From Sneathiellales bacterium (GTDB lineage: Bacteria; Pseudomonadota; Alphaproteobacteria; Sneathiellales; Sneathiellaceae), in the NCBI GenBank assembly GCA_022360775.1, contig JAKSCD010000396.1, positions 1 through 36,519 on the forward strand: 36,519 bases of DNA. The letters run 5' to 3'. A program made the position numbers and the translations under genes. Under the pieces are notes generated by a model that did not search any database, had not been told where the DNA came from, and worked only from the letters and a program-made list of their open reading frames with translations. This document shows positions 11,276 to 17,760 of this stretch, one piece after another (position 1 is the first letter of the stretch; every line of letters begins with the position of its first letter).

Positions 11276-11839
11276 ATGAAAATTAATGGCAATGCAATTC
11301 GCCCCGGAAACGTGATCGAACATAAAGGCGGTCTCTGGGTCGCTGTGAAGATCCAGCATACGCAGCCTGGAAAAGGCGGTGCATATCTTCAGGTTGAACT
11401 GAAGAACCTGCGCGACGGGACCAAACTGAACGAACGTTTCCGCTCTTCTGAAACGGTGGAACGGGCGCGGCTTGAGCAGAAAGATCATCAGTTCCTGTTT
11501 GAAGATGGTGATCTTTTGAATTTCATGGATACAGGCACCTATGAGCAGGTTGCCATTTCCAAGGAACTGGTTGGCGATAAAGCCCAGTTCCTTCAGGATG
11601 GTATGCAGGTGGAAATTGAATTTTATGAAGAAGAACCCTTAAATGTTCTTCTTCCTGAGCATATCACGCTAGAGATTTCCGAGACCGAGCCGACTGTGAA
11701 AGGCCAGACCGCTGCGTCTTCCTACAAACCGGCTATATTGGAAAATGGCATGCGGATCATGGTTCCGCCCTTTTGCAGCAGCGGCGAGAAAATTGTCGTT
11801 AATACAGAAACCTCCGAATATGCAAAGAGAGCAGACTAA
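11276..11839 (+). CDS. efp: Elongation factor P
   Basis: EF-P (187 residues, usual length 185-190) binds between the P and E sites and relieves ribosome stalling at polyproline. The N-terminal KOW-like domain shows [19 protein letters not shown] and the exposed loop [11 protein letters not shown], with Lys33 at the position of E. coli K34, which is beta-lysylated by EpmA/EpmB. No epm gene is visible in the window. The middle OB domain contains [14 protein letters not shown] and FMDTGTYEQ; the C-terminal OB domain ends [15 protein letters not shown]. The C-terminal MVPPFCSSG replaces the MVPPHI-type sequence I expect in alphaproteobacteria. The Shine-Dalgarno is weak (GGACGA about 10 bases upstream). 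The next gene, suhB-like, starts 35 bases downstream. Confidence 0.96.
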
Positions 11840-11849
11840 ACTGCTCTTT
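11826..11849 (+). terminator. Weak hairpin at the efp 3' end
   Basis: AGAGAGCAG (11826-11834) can pair with CTGCTCTTT (11841-11849) over nine pairs including one G-U, with a 6-base loop that overlaps the efp stop. It is followed by CCCTCTTTTG. It may attenuate transcription between efp and the suhB-like gene. Confidence 0.4.
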
Positions 11850-11874
11850 CCCTCTTTTGTAACCAGGTAACCCA

Positions 11875-12681
11875 ATGGCCCGTAAATCCGCCCTTATCAA
11901 TGTCATGGAAGCTGCTGCCCGTAAGGCCGCTCCAAAGCTTCTGCGCGACTTCAACGAAGTGGAAAATCTTCAGGTTTCCAAAAAAGGGCCTGCGGATTTT
12001 GTCAGCAATGCCGATATTGCTGCAGAGAAGACCATTCGGGCGGAACTGGAGCGCGCCCGTCCTGACTTTGGTTTCAAACTGGAAGAAGGCGGGGAGGTTC
12101 CTGCAAAAGACGGGAAATCCTACTGGATTGTTGACCCACTCGACGGAACCACAAATTTCCTGCATGGCATTCCTCATTTCGCCATTTCCATCGCACTGAT
12201 GGAAGGCAAGGAAATTGTCGCAGGTGTTATCCTTGATTTGACAAAGGATGAGCTTTTCTGGGCAGAAAAAGGGGATGGAGCATTCGTCAATAATCACCGG
12301 CTGCGTGTTTCCGGCCGTAATCGTATGTCGGACTGTGTCCTTTCTACAGGTATTCCATTTGTTGGCCGGCCAGGCCATGAAGCTTTTTTGCGTGAAGCCA
12401 ATGAAGTTATGGCTGTATCTGCCGGTATCCGCCGTTTTGGCTCTGCGGCACTGGATCTCGCTTATGTAGCAGCCGGTCGTTATGACGGCTTCTGGGAACG
12501 GAATCTTTCTCCCTGGGATATCGCTGCAGGCATCATTATCGTTCGAGAAGCGGGTGGGCTTGTCAGTCAGATTGATGGCGGTGAAAAGATGCTGGAAAAA
12601 GGGGATATCCTTGCCACAAATAGCGGTATTAATCAGCCCATGCTCGATTTGCTGCGGCAAGCGCGAAATAAACGCGCCTAA
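11875..12681 (+). CDS. suhB: Inositol monophosphatase family protein (SuhB-like)
   Basis: A Mg-dependent phosphatase of 268 residues in the IMPase/FBPase superfamily; E. coli SuhB hydrolyses inositol 1-phosphate and also acts in rRNA antitermination with NusA. Metal ligands are visible: the acidic KLEEGG (Glu70/71), WIVDPLDGTTNFLHG with Asp87 and Asp90 (motif A), and SPWDIAAG with Asp215 (motif B). The N-terminus SALINVMEAAARKAAPKLL matches the alphaproteobacterial SuhB type. The ATG at 11875 gives the full family length. It lies 35 bases after efp and is closed by a good hairpin. Whether the main role is sugar-phosphate hydrolysis or RNA-polymerase binding cannot be decided from the sequence. 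Confidence 0.93.
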   Translation: MARKSALINVMEAAARKAAPKLLRDFNEVENLQVSKKGPADFVSNADIAAEKTIRAELERARPDFGFKLEEGGEVPAKDGKSYWIVDPLDGTTNFLHGIPHFAISIALMEGKEIVAGVILDLTKDELFWAEKGDGAFVNNHRLRVSGRNRMSDCVLSTGIPFVGRPGHEAFLREANEVMAVSAGIRRFGSAALDLAYVAAGRYDGFWERNLSPWDIAAGIIIVREAGGLVSQIDGGEKMLEKGDILATNSGINQPMLDLLRQARNKRA

Positions 12682-12694
12682 AAGTCTCTGTGAT

Positions 12695-12725
12695 CGGGCT
12701 CACTAAAAAGTTGAGCCCGTCTCTC
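12695..12725 (+). terminator. Terminator after the suhB-like gene
   Basis: A perfect 8-bp stem CGGGCTCA (12695-12702) / TGAGCCCG (12712-12719) with a 9-base loop lies 13 bases after the stop. The following TCTCTC is only moderately T-rich. It separates the efp-suhB unit from the envelope trio that starts at 12872. Confidence 0.7.
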
Positions 12726-12871: not shown

Positions 12872-13963
12872 ATGTTAAAACCTTTCAGGCTGACATCATC
12901 ATCAGCGAGTACAACAGCATTAACATTTGCCGCTGTACTGACTGCGACAGGTCTTACAGCTTTTTCTTCACAAGCCCAAACCGTTGTAATTGGCGGAGCA
13001 GGCGGGCAAGCCGTTCAGGTTAATATGGGAGCCGGTCTTCCGGCGCAACAACCCTATTATCGCCCGAACGTGTCTCCTTCTCAATCATCTCAGCAGGACT
13101 TCTCAAAAGGCAGCAGGATTGTCTATGGCGATGAAGTCATTGTTCTTACACCTCCTGGCAGTAAACCTAAAAAGAAAATCGTTGCTGCCAAGAAAAAGAA
13201 AAAACCTGTACCAACTGTATCGCGCGCACCTAAAAAAGAACCCGCAAAAGCTGAAATTAAAAAACTGGCTTCGACACCTGTGGATCAGGAAATGAAAAAA
13301 GAACCGCCAAAAATGGCGGAAAAGAAACCGCAAGCCCCGGCGGCACCCAAACCAGCAGAAACAATTGCTGAAAAGAAAGAACTCGCGCCACAACCCGACG
13401 TTAAAAAACAGGTCGCTCAACCAGAGAAAACGGTTGCTGAAAAACCCTCTACACCACCGCCAGCAGTAACAGTGGAAAAGCAGCAATCTGCCGAAAAGGT
13501 GCCTGCCCCCAATACTGAAAAGGAAGTGGTAGCTGCTCCGGCTCCGGTAGCGGAAGAGAAAAAAACAATGGAGGTCGCGGCATTAGCACCGGAGAAGAAA
13601 GCTGCCCCAACCGAACAACCAAAGCCAGAGAAAGAAGTTTCCACGCCCGAAGTCAAATCTGAAGCGACAAATCAGATCCTTTTTGAAAAAGAGAAATCCT
13701 CTCTTCCAGGCGGGGCAGATACCCAGCTTGCAAAACTCGCAACCTTGCTGAAATCCGGTGAAGATCGGGTTCAGCTTATAGCCTATGCGGATGCTGGCAG
13801 TAACAGCGCCGCCAGAAGACTATCCCTTGGGCGCGCCCTTGAAGTTCGCTCGAAACTGATGGAGCTCGGTATTCCCAATAACCGGATTGAGGTTCGAGCT
13901 CTTGGCAGACCCAAAGACAGTTCCCCGGCGGATCGAGTAGACCTTAAAGTTATAGCGCGGTAA
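12872..13963 (+). CDS. Secreted OmpA-like protein with Pro/Lys/Glu-rich linker
   Basis: The first gene of a three-gene envelope operon, 363 residues. Residues 1-35 form a Sec signal peptide with a hydrophobic core (ALTFAAVLTATGLTAF) and a likely signal peptidase I cut after SSQA. About 95-262 is a low-complexity segment rich in Pro, Lys, Glu and Ala with repeated EKK, KPE and APxP units, resembling the TonB/TolA type of periplasm-spanning linker. The C-terminal 100 residues are OmpA-like: LIAYADAGSNSAARRLSLGRAL places Asp307 and Arg321 near the positions of the peptidoglycan-binding Asp and Arg of OmpA. The start at 12872 has GGGGG upstream and gives an intact signal peptide; a frame from 12830 would bury it. 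The stop is 2 bases before the channel gene, so coupling is likely. Confidence 0.87.
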   Translation: MLKPFRLTSSSASTTALTFAAVLTATGLTAFSSQAQTVVIGGAGGQAVQVNMGAGLPAQQPYYRPNVSPSQSSQQDFSKGSRIVYGDEVIVLTPPGSKPKKKIVAAKKKKKPVPTVSRAPKKEPAKAEIKKLASTPVDQEMKKEPPKMAEKKPQAPAAPKPAETIAEKKELAPQPDVKKQVAQPEKTVAEKPSTPPPAVTVEKQQSAEKVPAPNTEKEVVAAPAPVAEEKKTMEVAALAPEKKAAPTEQPKPEKEVSTPEVKSEATNQILFEKEKSSLPGGADTQLAKLATLLKSGEDRVQLIAYADAGSNSAARRLSLGRALEVRSKLMELGIPNNRIEVRALGRPKDSSPADRVDLKVIAR

Positions 13964-13965
13964 TC

Positions 13966-15162
13966 ATGACGACACTTCCAGGACTAAACGCTTCCGATAT
14001 TCTCACGGCTCCAAAGATAAACAAACCCCGTCGTCATCTTATCCGGATGCTGGTCTTCCTGGGCATTGTTATAGGCATATCCGTTTTCCTGTTTGGTCCG
14101 GGGCGAGAGGCCTTTGAAGCCAATCCTTATCTCAATGGCCTAATTTTAGCGGTCCTGCTTTTTGGCGTTGTTTTTATCTTCAGACAGGTTTTTATCCTGA
14201 ATAAGGAAATCAACTGGATTGATAATCTGAAACGGGTTGAAGGCGGGATTTCCCTGCAGTCTTCTCCCAATCTTCTTTCACCGCTTGCGACAATTTTACG
14301 AGATTCCAAAGGTCCGCTACGCCTTACTGCAATCACGATGAATACCCTGCTGGACAGTATCAGTGCGCGGCTTGATGAAGGGCGGGATATTTCCAGATAT
14401 CTGATTAATGTTCTCATTTTCCTGGGTCTTCTTGGTACTTTTTGGGGACTGCTGGAAACTGTTTCTTCTGTTGGTGCTGCAATTTCAACACTGAATGTGG
14501 GCGGCGGAGATTTCACAAAGATCTTTGACGAGTTAAAGGTCGGTCTCGAACGTCCCCTTTCCGGTATGGCTGTTGCCTTTTCTTCCTCCCTGTTTGGCCT
14601 CTCAGGATCCCTGGTCCTTGGTTTTCTGGATATGCAGGCTGGCCAGGCACAAAACAGATTTTATACGGATCTTGAAGAATGGCTGACCTCCATCACCCGC
14701 TTCTCTTCCGCAGGGCCAGCAAATCTTGCGGATGGAGACCAAAGTGTTCCTGCTTATGTCAGCGCCTTGCTGGAGCAAACAGCAGAAAGCCTGGACAGCC
14801 TTCAGCGCACCCTTGCCCGGAATGAAGAGCGGCGTCACGCAGGGGATAATGCCATGAATTCTGTCAGTGAAAAGCTTGCAGCCCTCACAGATCAAATGCG
14901 CGCAGAACAGGATCTCATGGTCAAACTTGTAGAAGGTCAGATGGAATTGAAACCTGTTCTTCAACGCATGGCGCAGCTTCAGGAGCAGGGTGGACTGGAC
15001 CAGGCCAGCCGCAATCATCTTCGTAATCTGGATGTTTATATGGCGCGCCTTCTTGAAGATATGGCCGACGGGCGTAACCAGATTACTCAGGAAATTCGAA
15101 GCGATATTAAACTTCTCACCCGAACCATTGCCGCCATTGCCGAAGAAGAGCGTCGCGGGTAA
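13966..15162 (+). CDS. MotA/TolQ/ExbB-type proton channel subunit
   Basis: A 398-residue inner-membrane protein. Four hydrophobic segments are visible at about 25-45, 56-78, 144-166 and 198-222. The third contains LIFLGLLGTFWGLLETV, the G-L-L-G-T-x-x-G signature of the ExbB/TolQ/MotA superfamily, and the fourth MAVAFSSSLFGLSGSLV matches the family's last helix. A cytoplasmic loop (about 80-140) and a 175-residue mostly helical C-terminal tail (about 225-398, with LLEQTAESLDSLQRTLARNEE) lie in the cytoplasm. Such proteins form proton-driven pentamers around a dimeric MotB/ExbD-type partner, here probably the next gene. It lies 2 bases after the OmpA-like gene and 19 before the MotB-like gene. 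Motility, Tol or other envelope energisation are all possible. Confidence 0.92.
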   Translation: MTTLPGLNASDILTAPKINKPRRHLIRMLVFLGIVIGISVFLFGPGREAFEANPYLNGLILAVLLFGVVFIFRQVFILNKEINWIDNLKRVEGGISLQSSPNLLSPLATILRDSKGPLRLTAITMNTLLDSISARLDEGRDISRYLINVLIFLGLLGTFWGLLETVSSVGAAISTLNVGGGDFTKIFDELKVGLERPLSGMAVAFSSSLFGLSGSLVLGFLDMQAGQAQNRFYTDLEEWLTSITRFSSAGPANLADGDQSVPAYVSALLEQTAESLDSLQRTLARNEERRHAGDNAMNSVSEKLAALTDQMRAEQDLMVKLVEGQMELKPVLQRMAQLQEQGGLDQASRNHLRNLDVYMARLLEDMADGRNQITQEIRSDIKLLTRTIAAIAEEERRG

Positions 15163-15181
15163 CTAAAACAAGGGATTACCA

Positions 15182-16564
15182 ATGGCACGCAGACGCAATG
15201 GACAACGCGCCAATTATGAAATCTGGCCAGGCTTTGTTGATGCCCTGACAACCCTTTTGCTTGTCATTATCTTTCTGCTCGTGGTCTTTGTTCTATCTCA
15301 GTTTTTCCTTTCACAAGCTCTCTCCGGCCGTGATGCGGCTCTTGAAAAACTGAACCAACAAGTGAATGAACTCGCAGATCTCCTGGCGCTGGAACGGCAA
15401 TCCAATGTGGAACTGCAGCAGGAGATCTCGTCCCTTACCATTGATCTTTCTAAATCCAATCAGGAACGTGACGCTGCGATTATCAGGCTGGATACGGTTA
15501 CTGCCCGTGCTCTGGAAGCCGAGGGAGAGAGAGACGAACTCACAGTTCTTTTACGCAAACAGGAAGAAAAAACCTCTGAAACGGAAGAAGAACTTAAAAA
15601 AGCGGAAGAGCGGATCAAGGCCGGAGAAGAAGCAATTGCCGTTAATCTGAAGGAAATTGAAAGCCTGAAAAGGGATATCGAGAGCCTGAAGAAAGTCCGA
15701 GAAGAGCTGGAAGCGAGCGTGAGTAAACTTGCCGGTAAAATCTCCGAGAAGGAAGTTGAAATCGGCGAGTTGCGGGACCGCAGCAAGGAGCTAGAAGCAC
15801 GCCTCGCCGAAACGTCGGAGAAAACTGTCCTTGCCCAGAAGGAAATTAAGGATCGGGATATTCGTCTGGCTGAGCTTCAGACGCTTTATTTGCAAACGCA
15901 GGATGCCCTGACAGAAGAAGAAAAAATCTCTATCGAGGCGAAAGCCCAGGTAGAACTCCTTAACGCCCAGCTTAAAACACTGCGCGAGCAACTGGCAAAA
16001 ATCGAAACCGCACTCGAAGCGTCAGAGGCAAAAGACAAAGAACAGAAAGCACAGATTGCCGACCTTGGAAAAAGGCTGAACCAGGCGCTTGCTCAAAAAG
16101 TGCAGGAGTTACAGCAATATCGGTCCAATTTCTTTGGTCAGCTTCGAAAAGTTCTTAAAAATCGCCCGGGTATCAGCGTCGTTGGGGATCGTTTTGTTTT
16201 CCAGTCAGAAGTTCTGTTTGGACTGGGAGAAGCTGAACTGGGCCAGCAGGGGCGTGAAAATATGGCCGCATTTGCCAAAACCCTTCTGGAAATTTCCAAC
16301 TCTATTCCGGATGAAATTGACTGGGTCCTGCGCGTTGATGGTCATACAGATCGCCAACCTATCAAAACGGCACGCTTTCCCTCCAACTGGGAGCTTTCAA
16401 TTGCACGGGCGTTGTCTGTTACAAAATATCTGATTGCACGCGGTGTGCCACCGGAGAGGCTTGCTCCGACCGGTTTTGGTGAGTTCCAGCCGCTTGATCC
16501 TCGCGAAGATGAAATCGCTTACCTTCGAAACCGACGGATCGAACTGAAACTCACTGAGCGGTAA
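15182..16564 (+). CDS. MotB-like stator subunit with long coiled coil and OmpA domain
   Basis: A 460-residue protein with one N-terminal transmembrane helix, WPGFVDALTTLLLVIIFLLV, in which Asp20 sits where MotB has its proton-accepting aspartate (D32 in E. coli). Residues about 50-315 form a nearly unbroken heptad-rich coiled coil of about 265 residues. Residues about 318-460 are an OmpA/MotB peptidoglycan-binding domain: VDGHTDRQPI, FPSNWELSIARALSV and RNRRIELKL. Flagellar MotB has only a short plug and linker there, so this is not the flagellar stator in standard form. The protein is the natural partner of the upstream ExbB/MotA-type subunit. The gene ends 8 bases from the convergent CoA-transferase stop, with no evident terminator hairpin between them. 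Confidence 0.93.
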   Translation: MARRRNGQRANYEIWPGFVDALTTLLLVIIFLLVVFVLSQFFLSQALSGRDAALEKLNQQVNELADLLALERQSNVELQQEISSLTIDLSKSNQERDAAIIRLDTVTARALEAEGERDELTVLLRKQEEKTSETEEELKKAEERIKAGEEAIAVNLKEIESLKRDIESLKKVREELEASVSKLAGKISEKEVEIGELRDRSKELEARLAETSEKTVLAQKEIKDRDIRLAELQTLYLQTQDALTEEEKISIEAKAQVELLNAQLKTLREQLAKIETALEASEAKDKEQKAQIADLGKRLNQALAQKVQELQQYRSNFFGQLRKVLKNRPGISVVGDRFVFQSEVLFGLGEAELGQQGRENMAAFAKTLLEISNSIPDEIDWVLRVDGHTDRQPIKTARFPSNWELSIARALSVTKYLIARGVPPERLAPTGFGEFQPLDPREDEIAYLRNRRIELKLTER

Positions 16565-16572
16565 TCTGTCAC

Positions 16573-17760
16573 CTAGCCTTTAAGTTTCACCAGGCCATTT
16601 TCAGCCATTGAGGCAATGGAATCGTCTTCATATCCAAGCTCGGCCATGAGCTCAGCAGTATGCTCACCAAGCTCTGGCGCTAGCTTGAAATCCTCTTGAT
16701 CGGAAGCTTCAAACTGAGCAGCAGGTCTGGCCTGACGGATTTCTCCGTAACCTGGAAACTCAAGCTGCTGAATAGATTGATTGACCTGGACCTGTTCATG
16801 ACCCAATAAGTCATCTCGCATCAGAATGGGCGCACATGGCACATCTTCCGCATCCAGACGGTCCAGCAAGGCTTCGCTTTCCCATTTGGCGATTTCATCC
16901 GTGATGATCTGCATCCGGAGATCTGCATGCTTATAACGATCAAGCGCGGTTTTAAATCTTGGATCCTCGCTTAATTCCGGTCTCCCAAAAGCACGGCACA
17001 TTCCCGCCCATTCTGAATCAGCAATCGCAAGCGTGGTGATATAGCCATCTTTGGTTTCAAAAACCGGTTCAAGCGCTCCCAGGCTTTTGGTCGTATCAAT
17101 ATCGAAATCTTCATATGTCAAACTGGCCATTCCTTCAGGCCAGAAGAAGGAAAGCATGCTGTCGAGCATGGAAAGCTTGATATGTTGCCCCTCCCCCTTC
17201 TTCTCACGTACATAAAGAGCGGTCGAAATCGCCTGCGCGGCGGTCAGAGAGGTAATCTTGTCGGCAACGATCAATTTGATCAGCCGTGGCCTTCTTGTGC
17301 CTTTATCCGCCTGAATATCTGCTGCACCAGACAGGGCCTGAATGACAGAGTCATATACCCGTTTTTGAGCATAAGGCCCTTTTTCACCAAACCCGCTAAT
17401 GGAAACATAAATCAGTTTCTTATTACGCTTTCGAACATCTTCAGCTGAAAAGCCCATTTTTTCAATGGCGCCCGGGCGAAAATTCTGGATCAGGATATCT
17501 GCCGTATCAATCAGTTTCCAGAGAACCTCTTTGCCCTCGTCTGACTTAAGGTCCAGTGAAATGGATCTTTTCCCACGATTACACGAGAAAAACATGGGAT
17601 TAACCCCGTAATGGGAGGATCGAACATGACGCATCTGCTCGCCGTGAATAGGTTCAACCTTTATGACATCCGCACCCTGATCCCCAAGAATTGTGGCTGC
17701 AACCGGGCCGGAAACCATCGTCGTTAAATCCAGCACCCTGATCCCTTCTAAAAGATCCAT
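16573..17760 (-). CDS. CaiB/BaiF family (family III) CoA transferase
   Basis: A 395-residue class III CoA transferase, which moves CoA between carboxylic acids through an aspartyl-CoA-type intermediate. N-terminal LEGIRVLDLTTMVSGPVAA and GADVIKVEPIHGEQMR are family hallmarks, as are SCNRGKRSISLDLK and LIQNFRPGAIEKMG. The nucleophile is expected at Asp167 in KLIVADKITSLTAAQAI, equivalent to Asp169 of formyl-CoA transferase. The substrate cannot be told from the sequence; carnitine, formate/oxalate, succinate and bile-acid acyl groups are all used within the family. The ATG at 17760 is the family start. It stands alone on the minus strand, 116 bases downstream of the ABC exporter gene, and converges on the envelope trio. 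Confidence 0.94.
   Translation of the reverse strand: MDLLEGIRVLDLTTMVSGPVAATILGDQGADVIKVEPIHGEQMRHVRSSHYGVNPMFFSCNRGKRSISLDLKSDEGKEVLWKLIDTADILIQNFRPGAIEKMGFSAEDVRKRNKKLIYVSISGFGEKGPYAQKRVYDSVIQALSGAADIQADKGTRRPRLIKLIVADKITSLTAAQAISTALYVREKKGEGQHIKLSMLDSMLSFFWPEGMASLTYEDFDIDTTKSLGALEPVFETKDGYITTLAIADSEWAGMCRAFGRPELSEDPRFKTALDRYKHADLRMQIITDEIAKWESEALLDRLDAEDVPCAPILMRDDLLGHEQVQVNQSIQQLEFPGYGEIRQARPAAQFEASDQEDFKLAPELGEHTAELMAELGYEDDSIASMAENGLVKLKG

What the first reader, a model, noticed from the sequence alone, without database searches (positions are those of the whole stretch)
12872..16564. Three-gene envelope operon: OmpA-like protein, ExbB/MotA-like channel and MotB-like subunit
The three genes are separated by 2 and 19 bases. 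Together they encode a proton-driven stator (Asp20 in the MotB-like helix, GLLGTFWG in the channel) plus two separate peptidoglycan-binding OmpA domains, one on a TonB/TolA-like linker. It is not the standard MotAB, TolQR or ExbBD set: there is no TolR/ExbD-size partner, no tolA/tolB/pal and no flagellar gene nearby. It looks like a dedicated energised envelope machine whose role I cannot name.
Basis: partly seen in the sequence, partly recalled or inferred. Interest (0 to 1): 0.6.

Follow-up and report, generated by a model that had tools for sequence, protein, structure and literature searches.

The report
Class-wide alphaproteobacterial cell-envelope proton motor
A three-gene operon in a Sneathiella-like marine bacterium encodes a proton-driven membrane motor, anchored to the cell wall by a very long helical stalk, that is conserved across most Alphaproteobacteria, is separate from the flagellar, Tol-Pal and TonB motors, and has no established function.

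Summary
The three ORFs are at the stated coordinates (gaps 2 and 19 bp). The genome has separate tolQRAB-pal, two exbBD sets and two motA-type loci, so this is a sixth stator.

Corrections: (1) The partner belongs to the curated but uncharacterised NCBIfam family PRK09039 'peptidoglycan -binding protein'. Only it has an intact peptidoglycan site; the separate OmpA-like protein has lost the binding Asn, and in most relatives the Asp, and is absent from part of the class, including Sinorhizobium. (2) The channel groups with Zorya ZorA and type I secretion-linked stators, not TolQ/ExbB (AU p=0.017); MotA is not excluded (p=0.057). (3) The partner has a predicted ~300-residue helical stalk.

There is no association with flagella and no Zorya partner genes. 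In Sinorhizobium the pair lies near a Sel1-repeat gene, most likely rgsF, an essential polar-growth factor. A probable Komagataeibacter homologue is polar, and its overexpression elongates cells.

Best reading: a PMF-driven, wall-anchored envelope motor for polar or septal growth, alongside Tol-Pal. Architecture is well supported; the role is inferred.

The parts
12872..13963 (+). OmpA-like secreted protein, 363 aa: N-terminal signal sequence (MLKPF...SSQAQ), short conserved motif after it (TVVIGG.G...V.VN; then V.L.PPG), ~225-aa K/P/A/V/E-rich linker, degenerate C-terminal OmpA domain
   Evidence: ORF; Pfam OmpA 44 bits, residues 270-349; family alignment A3; Asn of the PG site absent in 12/12, Asp present in 2/12 incl. 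the window; linker composition
13966..15162 (+). MotA/ExbB-type proton-channel subunit ('ChanA'), 398 aa: four membrane helices, condensed loop between TM2 and TM3, ~175-aa helical C-terminal cytoplasmic tail
   Evidence: AlphaFold2 model mean pLDDT 75.9; structural matches to TolQ/ExbB/ZorA Z about 11 and MotA Z about 9.5
14425..14448 (+). GLLGTFWG motif of TM3, residues 154-161 of the channel
   Evidence: invariant in 17/17; LGT[FV][WYVL]G in 139/140 loci
15182..16564 (+). MotB-like subunit, 460 aa: one membrane helix, ~300-residue helical stalk (kink near residue 160), canonical peptidoglycan-binding OmpA domain (residues ~346-460)
   Evidence: NCBIfam NF006543 (PRK09039.1-2) 473.5 bits, cut-off 305; Pfam OmpA 51.7 bits; AlphaFold2 helices 16-160 and 162-325 then alpha/beta domain; alignment A2
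15239..15241 (+). Codon of Asp20, the proton-binding carboxylate at the start of the MotB-like membrane helix (WPGFVD)
   Evidence: invariant in 17/17; W[PSA]G[FYW]VD in 130 of 131 homologues, the exception being an N-truncated ORF
11276..12681 (+). Conserved upstream neighbours efp (11276-11839) and inositol-monophosphatase-family gene (11875-12681); genomic context, not part of the machine
   Evidence: IMPase upstream in 65/77 and efp in 59/77 loci with >=3.5 kb upstream

Best explanation
A proton-motive-force-driven 5:2 motor, dedicated to the cell envelope and conserved across the Alphaproteobacteria. Five channel subunits surround the membrane helices of two MotB-like subunits; protons pass by way of Asp20 and drive relative rotation or conformational cycling. 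The MotB-like dimer is fixed to the peptidoglycan by its OmpA domain at the end of a very long helical stalk, so torque or force is exerted between the wall and the channel ring, whose five helical tails project into the cytoplasm. The OmpA-like secreted protein, present in many lineages but not all, is an accessory (coupling, plug control or outer-membrane/wall contact), not a second canonical wall anchor. The output is most likely wall and outer-membrane work at the poles and/or the septum, in parallel with Tol-Pal. Shown (by comparison or prediction): gene order, residue conservation, fold class, independence from flagella, separate Tol/Ton/Mot sets. Inferred: stoichiometry, proton use, direction of force, role of the OmpA-like protein, polar/septal output.
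For: Channel fold; invariant Asp20, GLLGTFWG, SSLFGL; intact PG site D390/N402/R409 in 17/17 MotB-like proteins on a helical stalk whose length across 88 homologues is never under ~135 aa, about 20 nm as a straight helix. Class-wide block. Present in 71 genomes without FlhA, absent in 51 with it, Fisher p=0.20. In genomes of 0.7-1.4 Mb it is often the only stator left besides one TolQ/ExbB-type protein (L241, L242). In S. meliloti the pair lies in thiE-sel1-IMPase-channel-MotB-like-ABC; [quoted passage not shown] A Sel1 gene holds the same place in ten other loci. A probable Komagataeibacter homologue (348/321 aa, no flagella) localises to poles, and overexpression elongates cells (PMC6570709).
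Against: No experiment on this pair itself. The K. hansenii proteins were matched by description (lengths, topology, top hits), not by sequence here; GFP fusions were overexpressed. RgsF adjacency may be incidental, since efp and IMPase usually lie between, and the window has no sel1 gene between thiE and efp. The published RgsA/TolQ interaction lists that could be read do not name this pair. Several families lack the system.
Confidence: 0.5

Rival explanations
1. Proton-gated sensor or regulator: the pair senses wall state or PMF through the stalk and signals by its cytoplasmic tails, rather than doing mechanical work.
For: Conserved ~175-aa cytoplasmic helical tail with a conserved end (RSEIKLL.RTIAA) that has no known rotor partner; stalk length varies fivefold across the class, which is odd for a force-transmitting strut.
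Against: The whole proton pathway (Asp20, TM3/TM4 motifs) is invariant; in ZorAB both ion flow and the tail are needed for function (PMC11890865), so a tail does not argue against motor work.
Confidence: 0.17
2. Energiser of an export or surface-polymer machine (SiiAB-like): it controls retention or release of an adhesin or polysaccharide.
For: Its nearest non-Zorya relatives are stators inside type I secretion clusters (L235: TolC-MotB-like-HlyD-channel-RTX; L243: ABC-MotB-like-channel); SiiAB of Salmonella is a proton channel controlling SiiE adhesin (PMC12607715); in Komagataeibacter overexpression changes the cellulose network (PMC6570709).
Against: No secretion genes in the block across the class; the flanking ABC protein is convergent, not co-transcribed, and conserved only by position.
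Confidence: 0.13
3. Zorya-like anti-phage motor.
For: PADLOC ZorA1 E=4e-13 and ZorB3 E=1e-26; channel groups with ZorA, UFboot 100.
Against: Far below the NCBIfam ZorA cut-offs (21 vs 100 bits); no ZorC/D/E-like neighbour in the genes tested; vertically conserved chromosomal block and retention in reduced genomes, unlike a defence island.
Confidence: 0.06
4. Alternative flagellar stator.
For: Four membrane helices and an OmpA-type B subunit, as in MotAB; the AU test does not exclude grouping with MotA (p=0.057).
Against: 71 genomes have it without FlhA and 51 have FlhA without it; own motA loci exist; no torque-interface-sized loop in the model.
Confidence: 0.04

Closest known systems
NCBIfam PRK09039 'peptidoglycan -binding protein' (NF006543 and siblings) with its neighbour 'MotA/TolQ/ExbB proton channel family protein'
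   Same: The MotB-like protein is a member (473.5 bits, cut-off 305); S. meliloti orthologues carry exactly these names
   Different: Nothing: this is the same family; it has a name but no described function
Zorya ZorAB
   Same: Channel with cytoplasmic helical tail, B subunit with PG-binding OmpA domain, same side of the tree
   Different: No ZorC/D/E; tail ~175 aa instead of hundreds; much longer helical stalk; chromosomal housekeeping context
SiiAB and other T1SS-linked stators
   Same: MotA-like plus PG-binding partner; nearest branch to the channel
   Different: No secretion genes in the block; SiiAB itself was not compared by sequence
Tol-Pal (TolQR)
   Same: Same channel fold (Z 11.7), envelope role, PG contact
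   Different: No TolR-size partner or TolA/TolB/Pal; a full Tol-Pal set exists elsewhere in the genome; grouping with TolQ/ExbB rejected, AU p=0.017
MotAB
   Same: Four membrane helices; OmpA-type PG domain on the B subunit
   Different: Condensed cytoplasmic loop, added C-terminal tail, helical stalk instead of plug+linker, no flagellar association

Membership tests
PRK09039 family (NF006543) | Score over the curated cut-off (305 bits) | tested here: met
   473.5 bits; 474.8 in the genome search
MotA/TolQ/ExbB proton-channel superfamily | Channel fold and TM3/TM4 motifs | tested here: met
   TolQ/ExbB/ZorA/MotA are the top structural matches; PF01618 borderline, 24.5 with neighbours, cut-off 22.9
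Flagellar MotAB | Expanded cytoplasmic torque interface between TM2 and TM3 | tested here: not met
   Model has one short helix (105-113) in that loop; the definition is from PMC12505986
Flagellar MotAB | Occurs with flagellar genes | tested here: not met
   71 genomes with channel but no FlhA; Fisher p=0.20
TolQR / Tol-Pal | TolR-size partner and tolA, tolB, pal nearby | tested here: not met
   460-aa partner; Tol-Pal set is on another contig
ExbBD | ExbD-size partner, TonB | tested here: not met
Zorya | ZorA/ZorB above curated cut-offs | tested here: not met
   ZorA_2 21 bits, cut-off 100
Zorya | ZorC/ZorD or ZorE adjacent | tested here: not met
   No Zorya model in eight neighbouring genes
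SiiAB-type T1SS stators | Located in a type I secretion operon | tested here: not met
   Block is efp-IMPase-[ompA]-channel-MotB-like
Any 5:2 motor | 5:2 stoichiometry and proton conduction | not testable with these tools
   Only single chains could be predicted

The most novel reading that the evidence does not exclude
The Alphaproteobacteria have a third universal housekeeping envelope motor besides Tol-Pal and TonB, working in polar/septal growth, and the Zorya and adhesin-secretion motors share a more recent ancestor with this housekeeping machine than with MotAB, TolQR or ExbBD.
Probability: 0.3. Interest if true: 0.8.

Novelty: new variant of a known kind. Interest (0 to 1): 0.55.

Why it matters
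A proton motor kept in about two thirds of sampled alphaproteobacterial genomes, including reduced ones that have lost most other stators, should do something basic, yet databases give only 'MotA/TolQ/ExbB family' and 'peptidoglycan -binding protein'. If it drives envelope growth at poles or septum, it would add an energised component to unipolar growth in rhizobia and relatives, where Tol-Pal already interacts with the Rgs growth factors, and give a non-defence relative in which to study how Zorya motors arose.

Tried and rejected
Flagellar role: no co-occurrence. Zorya membership: below cut-offs, no partners. Sole motAB/tolQR of the genome: five other loci found. PDB sequence search with the channel profile gave only coiled-coil chance matches to the tail (for the partner gave MotB/OmpA domains; for the channel). 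A first tree run failed to read its output and a larger robustness run timed out; a reduced set with another alignment was used instead. Literature search for the family name, for Tn-seq data and for rhizobial locus tags gave nothing on this pair. No promoter signal above chance. RgsF orthologue in the window's own genome: only generic Sel1-repeat matches.
Full report
OBSERVATION. The three ORFs exist as described: OmpA-like 12872-13963, channel 13966-15162, MotB-like 15182-16564, separated by 2 and 19 bp. The next gene downstream is a convergent CoA-transferase (16573-17760, -). Upstream on the same strand are fructose-bisphosphate aldolase, thiE, efp and an inositol-monophosphatase-family gene. 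The window lies in a 4.26-Mb draft genome (579 contigs); the closest named channel is that of Sneathiella glossodoripedis at 84%, so it is most likely a Sneathiella or near relative.

OTHER STATORS IN THE GENOME. PF01618 finds six loci. Reading them: ybgC-tolQ-tolR-tolA-tolB-pal (L061); exbB-exbD-exbD-tonB (L062); fliG...fliN-motA-flhA cluster (L063); TonB receptor-tonB-exbB-exbD (L064); motA-motB (L065); and this one.

DISTRIBUTION. The channel was found in 198 of 289 genomes sampled over the class (147 of 218 genera). In a phylum-wide sample, 78 of 104 positives belonged to the class; of the 26 others only a handful were strong, and most of the weak ones (E 1e-9 to 1e-4) had 700-1100-aa frames, i.e. 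ZorA-like proteins (read). Of 131 loci with enough downstream sequence, 128 have the MotB-like gene next, median gap 8 bp; of 77 with at least 3.5 kb upstream, 65 have the IMPase, 59 efp and 57 the OmpA-like gene. The OmpA-like gene is missing from many loci with a shorter channel and from S. meliloti. So the second refutation condition is not met for channel plus MotB-like; for the full trio it is met in part of the class.

INDEPENDENCE FROM FLAGELLA. With FlhA as marker in the same 289 genomes: 127 have both, 71 only the channel, 51 only FlhA, 40 neither; Fisher p=0.20. In several genomes of 0.7-1.4 Mb the only PF01618 proteins are one TolQ/ExbB-type protein and this channel (L241 and L242 confirmed by reading; in L241 no MotB-like gene was seen on the stretch fetched).

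ARCHITECTURE. Channel: AlphaFold2 (mean pLDDT 75.9) gives helices 22-41, 54-90, 122-175, 183-243 and a helical tail 263-397. VIA-align Z: TolQ 11.7, ExbB 11.5, ZorA 11.3, MotA 9.7; these are near ties, and helical bundles score high in general. The extra N-terminal helix is aligned only by MotA. Invariant blocks are GLLGTFWGL and SSLFGL. MotB-like: membrane helix with invariant WPG(F/Y/W)VD (130 of 131 homologues), helices 16-160 and 162-325, then the OmpA domain. The stalk is 284 aa in the window and ranges from 135 to 703 aa in 88 homologues. In the OmpA domain Asp390, Asn402 and Arg409 are invariant in 17 of 17. By contrast the OmpA-like protein family keeps the Arg (12/12) but not the Asn (0/12) or the Asp (2/12, the window among them). 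It also evolves fast: 44% identity to a congener whose channel is 88% identical.

KINSHIP. The unrooted ML tree separates channel + T1SS-linked stators + ZorA + two undescribed stators from MotA, TolQ and ExbB with SH-aLRT/UFboot 98.5/100. A reduced set with another alignment gives UFboot 100; AU: grouping with ZorA best (0.959), with MotA 0.057, with TolQ/ExbB 0.017. Caveats: the ZorA sequences were found because they weakly match this channel, the alignment is short (178 columns), and the tree is unrooted. The B subunit does not settle it: the MotB-like profile scores ZorB at 73-99 bits, but also two flagellar MotB-type proteins at 74-100 bits and others, the own MotB among them, at ~30.

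FUNCTION. The S. meliloti locus reads YdcH/DUF465, ArsR-type regulator, thiE, sel1, IMPase, channel, 'peptidoglycan -binding protein', ABC, rpmE. SMc03999 is a DUF465 protein (PMC8343143) and SMc03998 a transcription-regulator-like protein (PMC12542648), so the Sel1-repeat gene two places on is most likely SMc03995, i.e. RgsF, described with TPR and Sel1 repeats (PMC7327166; Sel1 confirmed). RgsF is essential (PMC5929573), periplasmic, needed for normal growth and located at growing pole and septum (PMC7327166). A Sel1 gene precedes efp or the IMPase in ten more loci, at 26-56% identity. This is guilt by position only. In Komagataeibacter hansenii, a species without flagella, 'MotA' (348 aa, four TM) and 'MotB' (321 aa) form a neighbouring pair; GFP fusions are polar and overexpression gives elongated cells (PMC6570709). 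That this pair is the same family is inferred from size, topology and its listed best hits.

VERDICT. A real, class-wide, uncharacterised proton motor of the envelope. Its genes carry names in databases, so it is not an unseen family, but its long-stalk architecture, tail and its place beside Zorya make it a distinct variant. The role in polar or septal envelope growth is the best-supported guess, not a demonstration.

Noticed in passing
L235:640-4058 and L243:328-5136: Relatives of the channel and partner sit inside type I secretion clusters (TolC, HlyD, ABC with C39-like part, RTX-type giant protein); in L243 the cluster lies directly upstream of a PilZ-like gene and efp.
   Followed up: partly
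L236:1623-3404 and L237:2720-4447: Two undescribed stator pairs (channel ~329 aa plus a 245-260-aa B subunit, in L236 without an evident OmpA domain) that fall near the same side of the tree.
   Followed up: no
L289:3433-4578: Sel1-repeat gene, most likely rgsF of S. meliloti, between thiE and the IMPase; a Sel1 gene holds a matching place in ten other loci.
   Followed up: partly
window 12695-12719: Perfect 8-bp inverted repeat (cgggctca / tgagcccg, 9-base loop) just after the IMPase gene, without a clear T run; it may mark the end of the upstream unit.
   Followed up: no
L254, L258 (genome G262): One genome has several long (727-773 aa) paralogues of the MotB-like protein.
   Followed up: no
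window 12980-13160: Conserved short motif right after the signal sequence of the OmpA-like proteins (TVVIGG.G...V.VN, later V.L.PPG), which may be a partner-binding site.
   Followed up: partly
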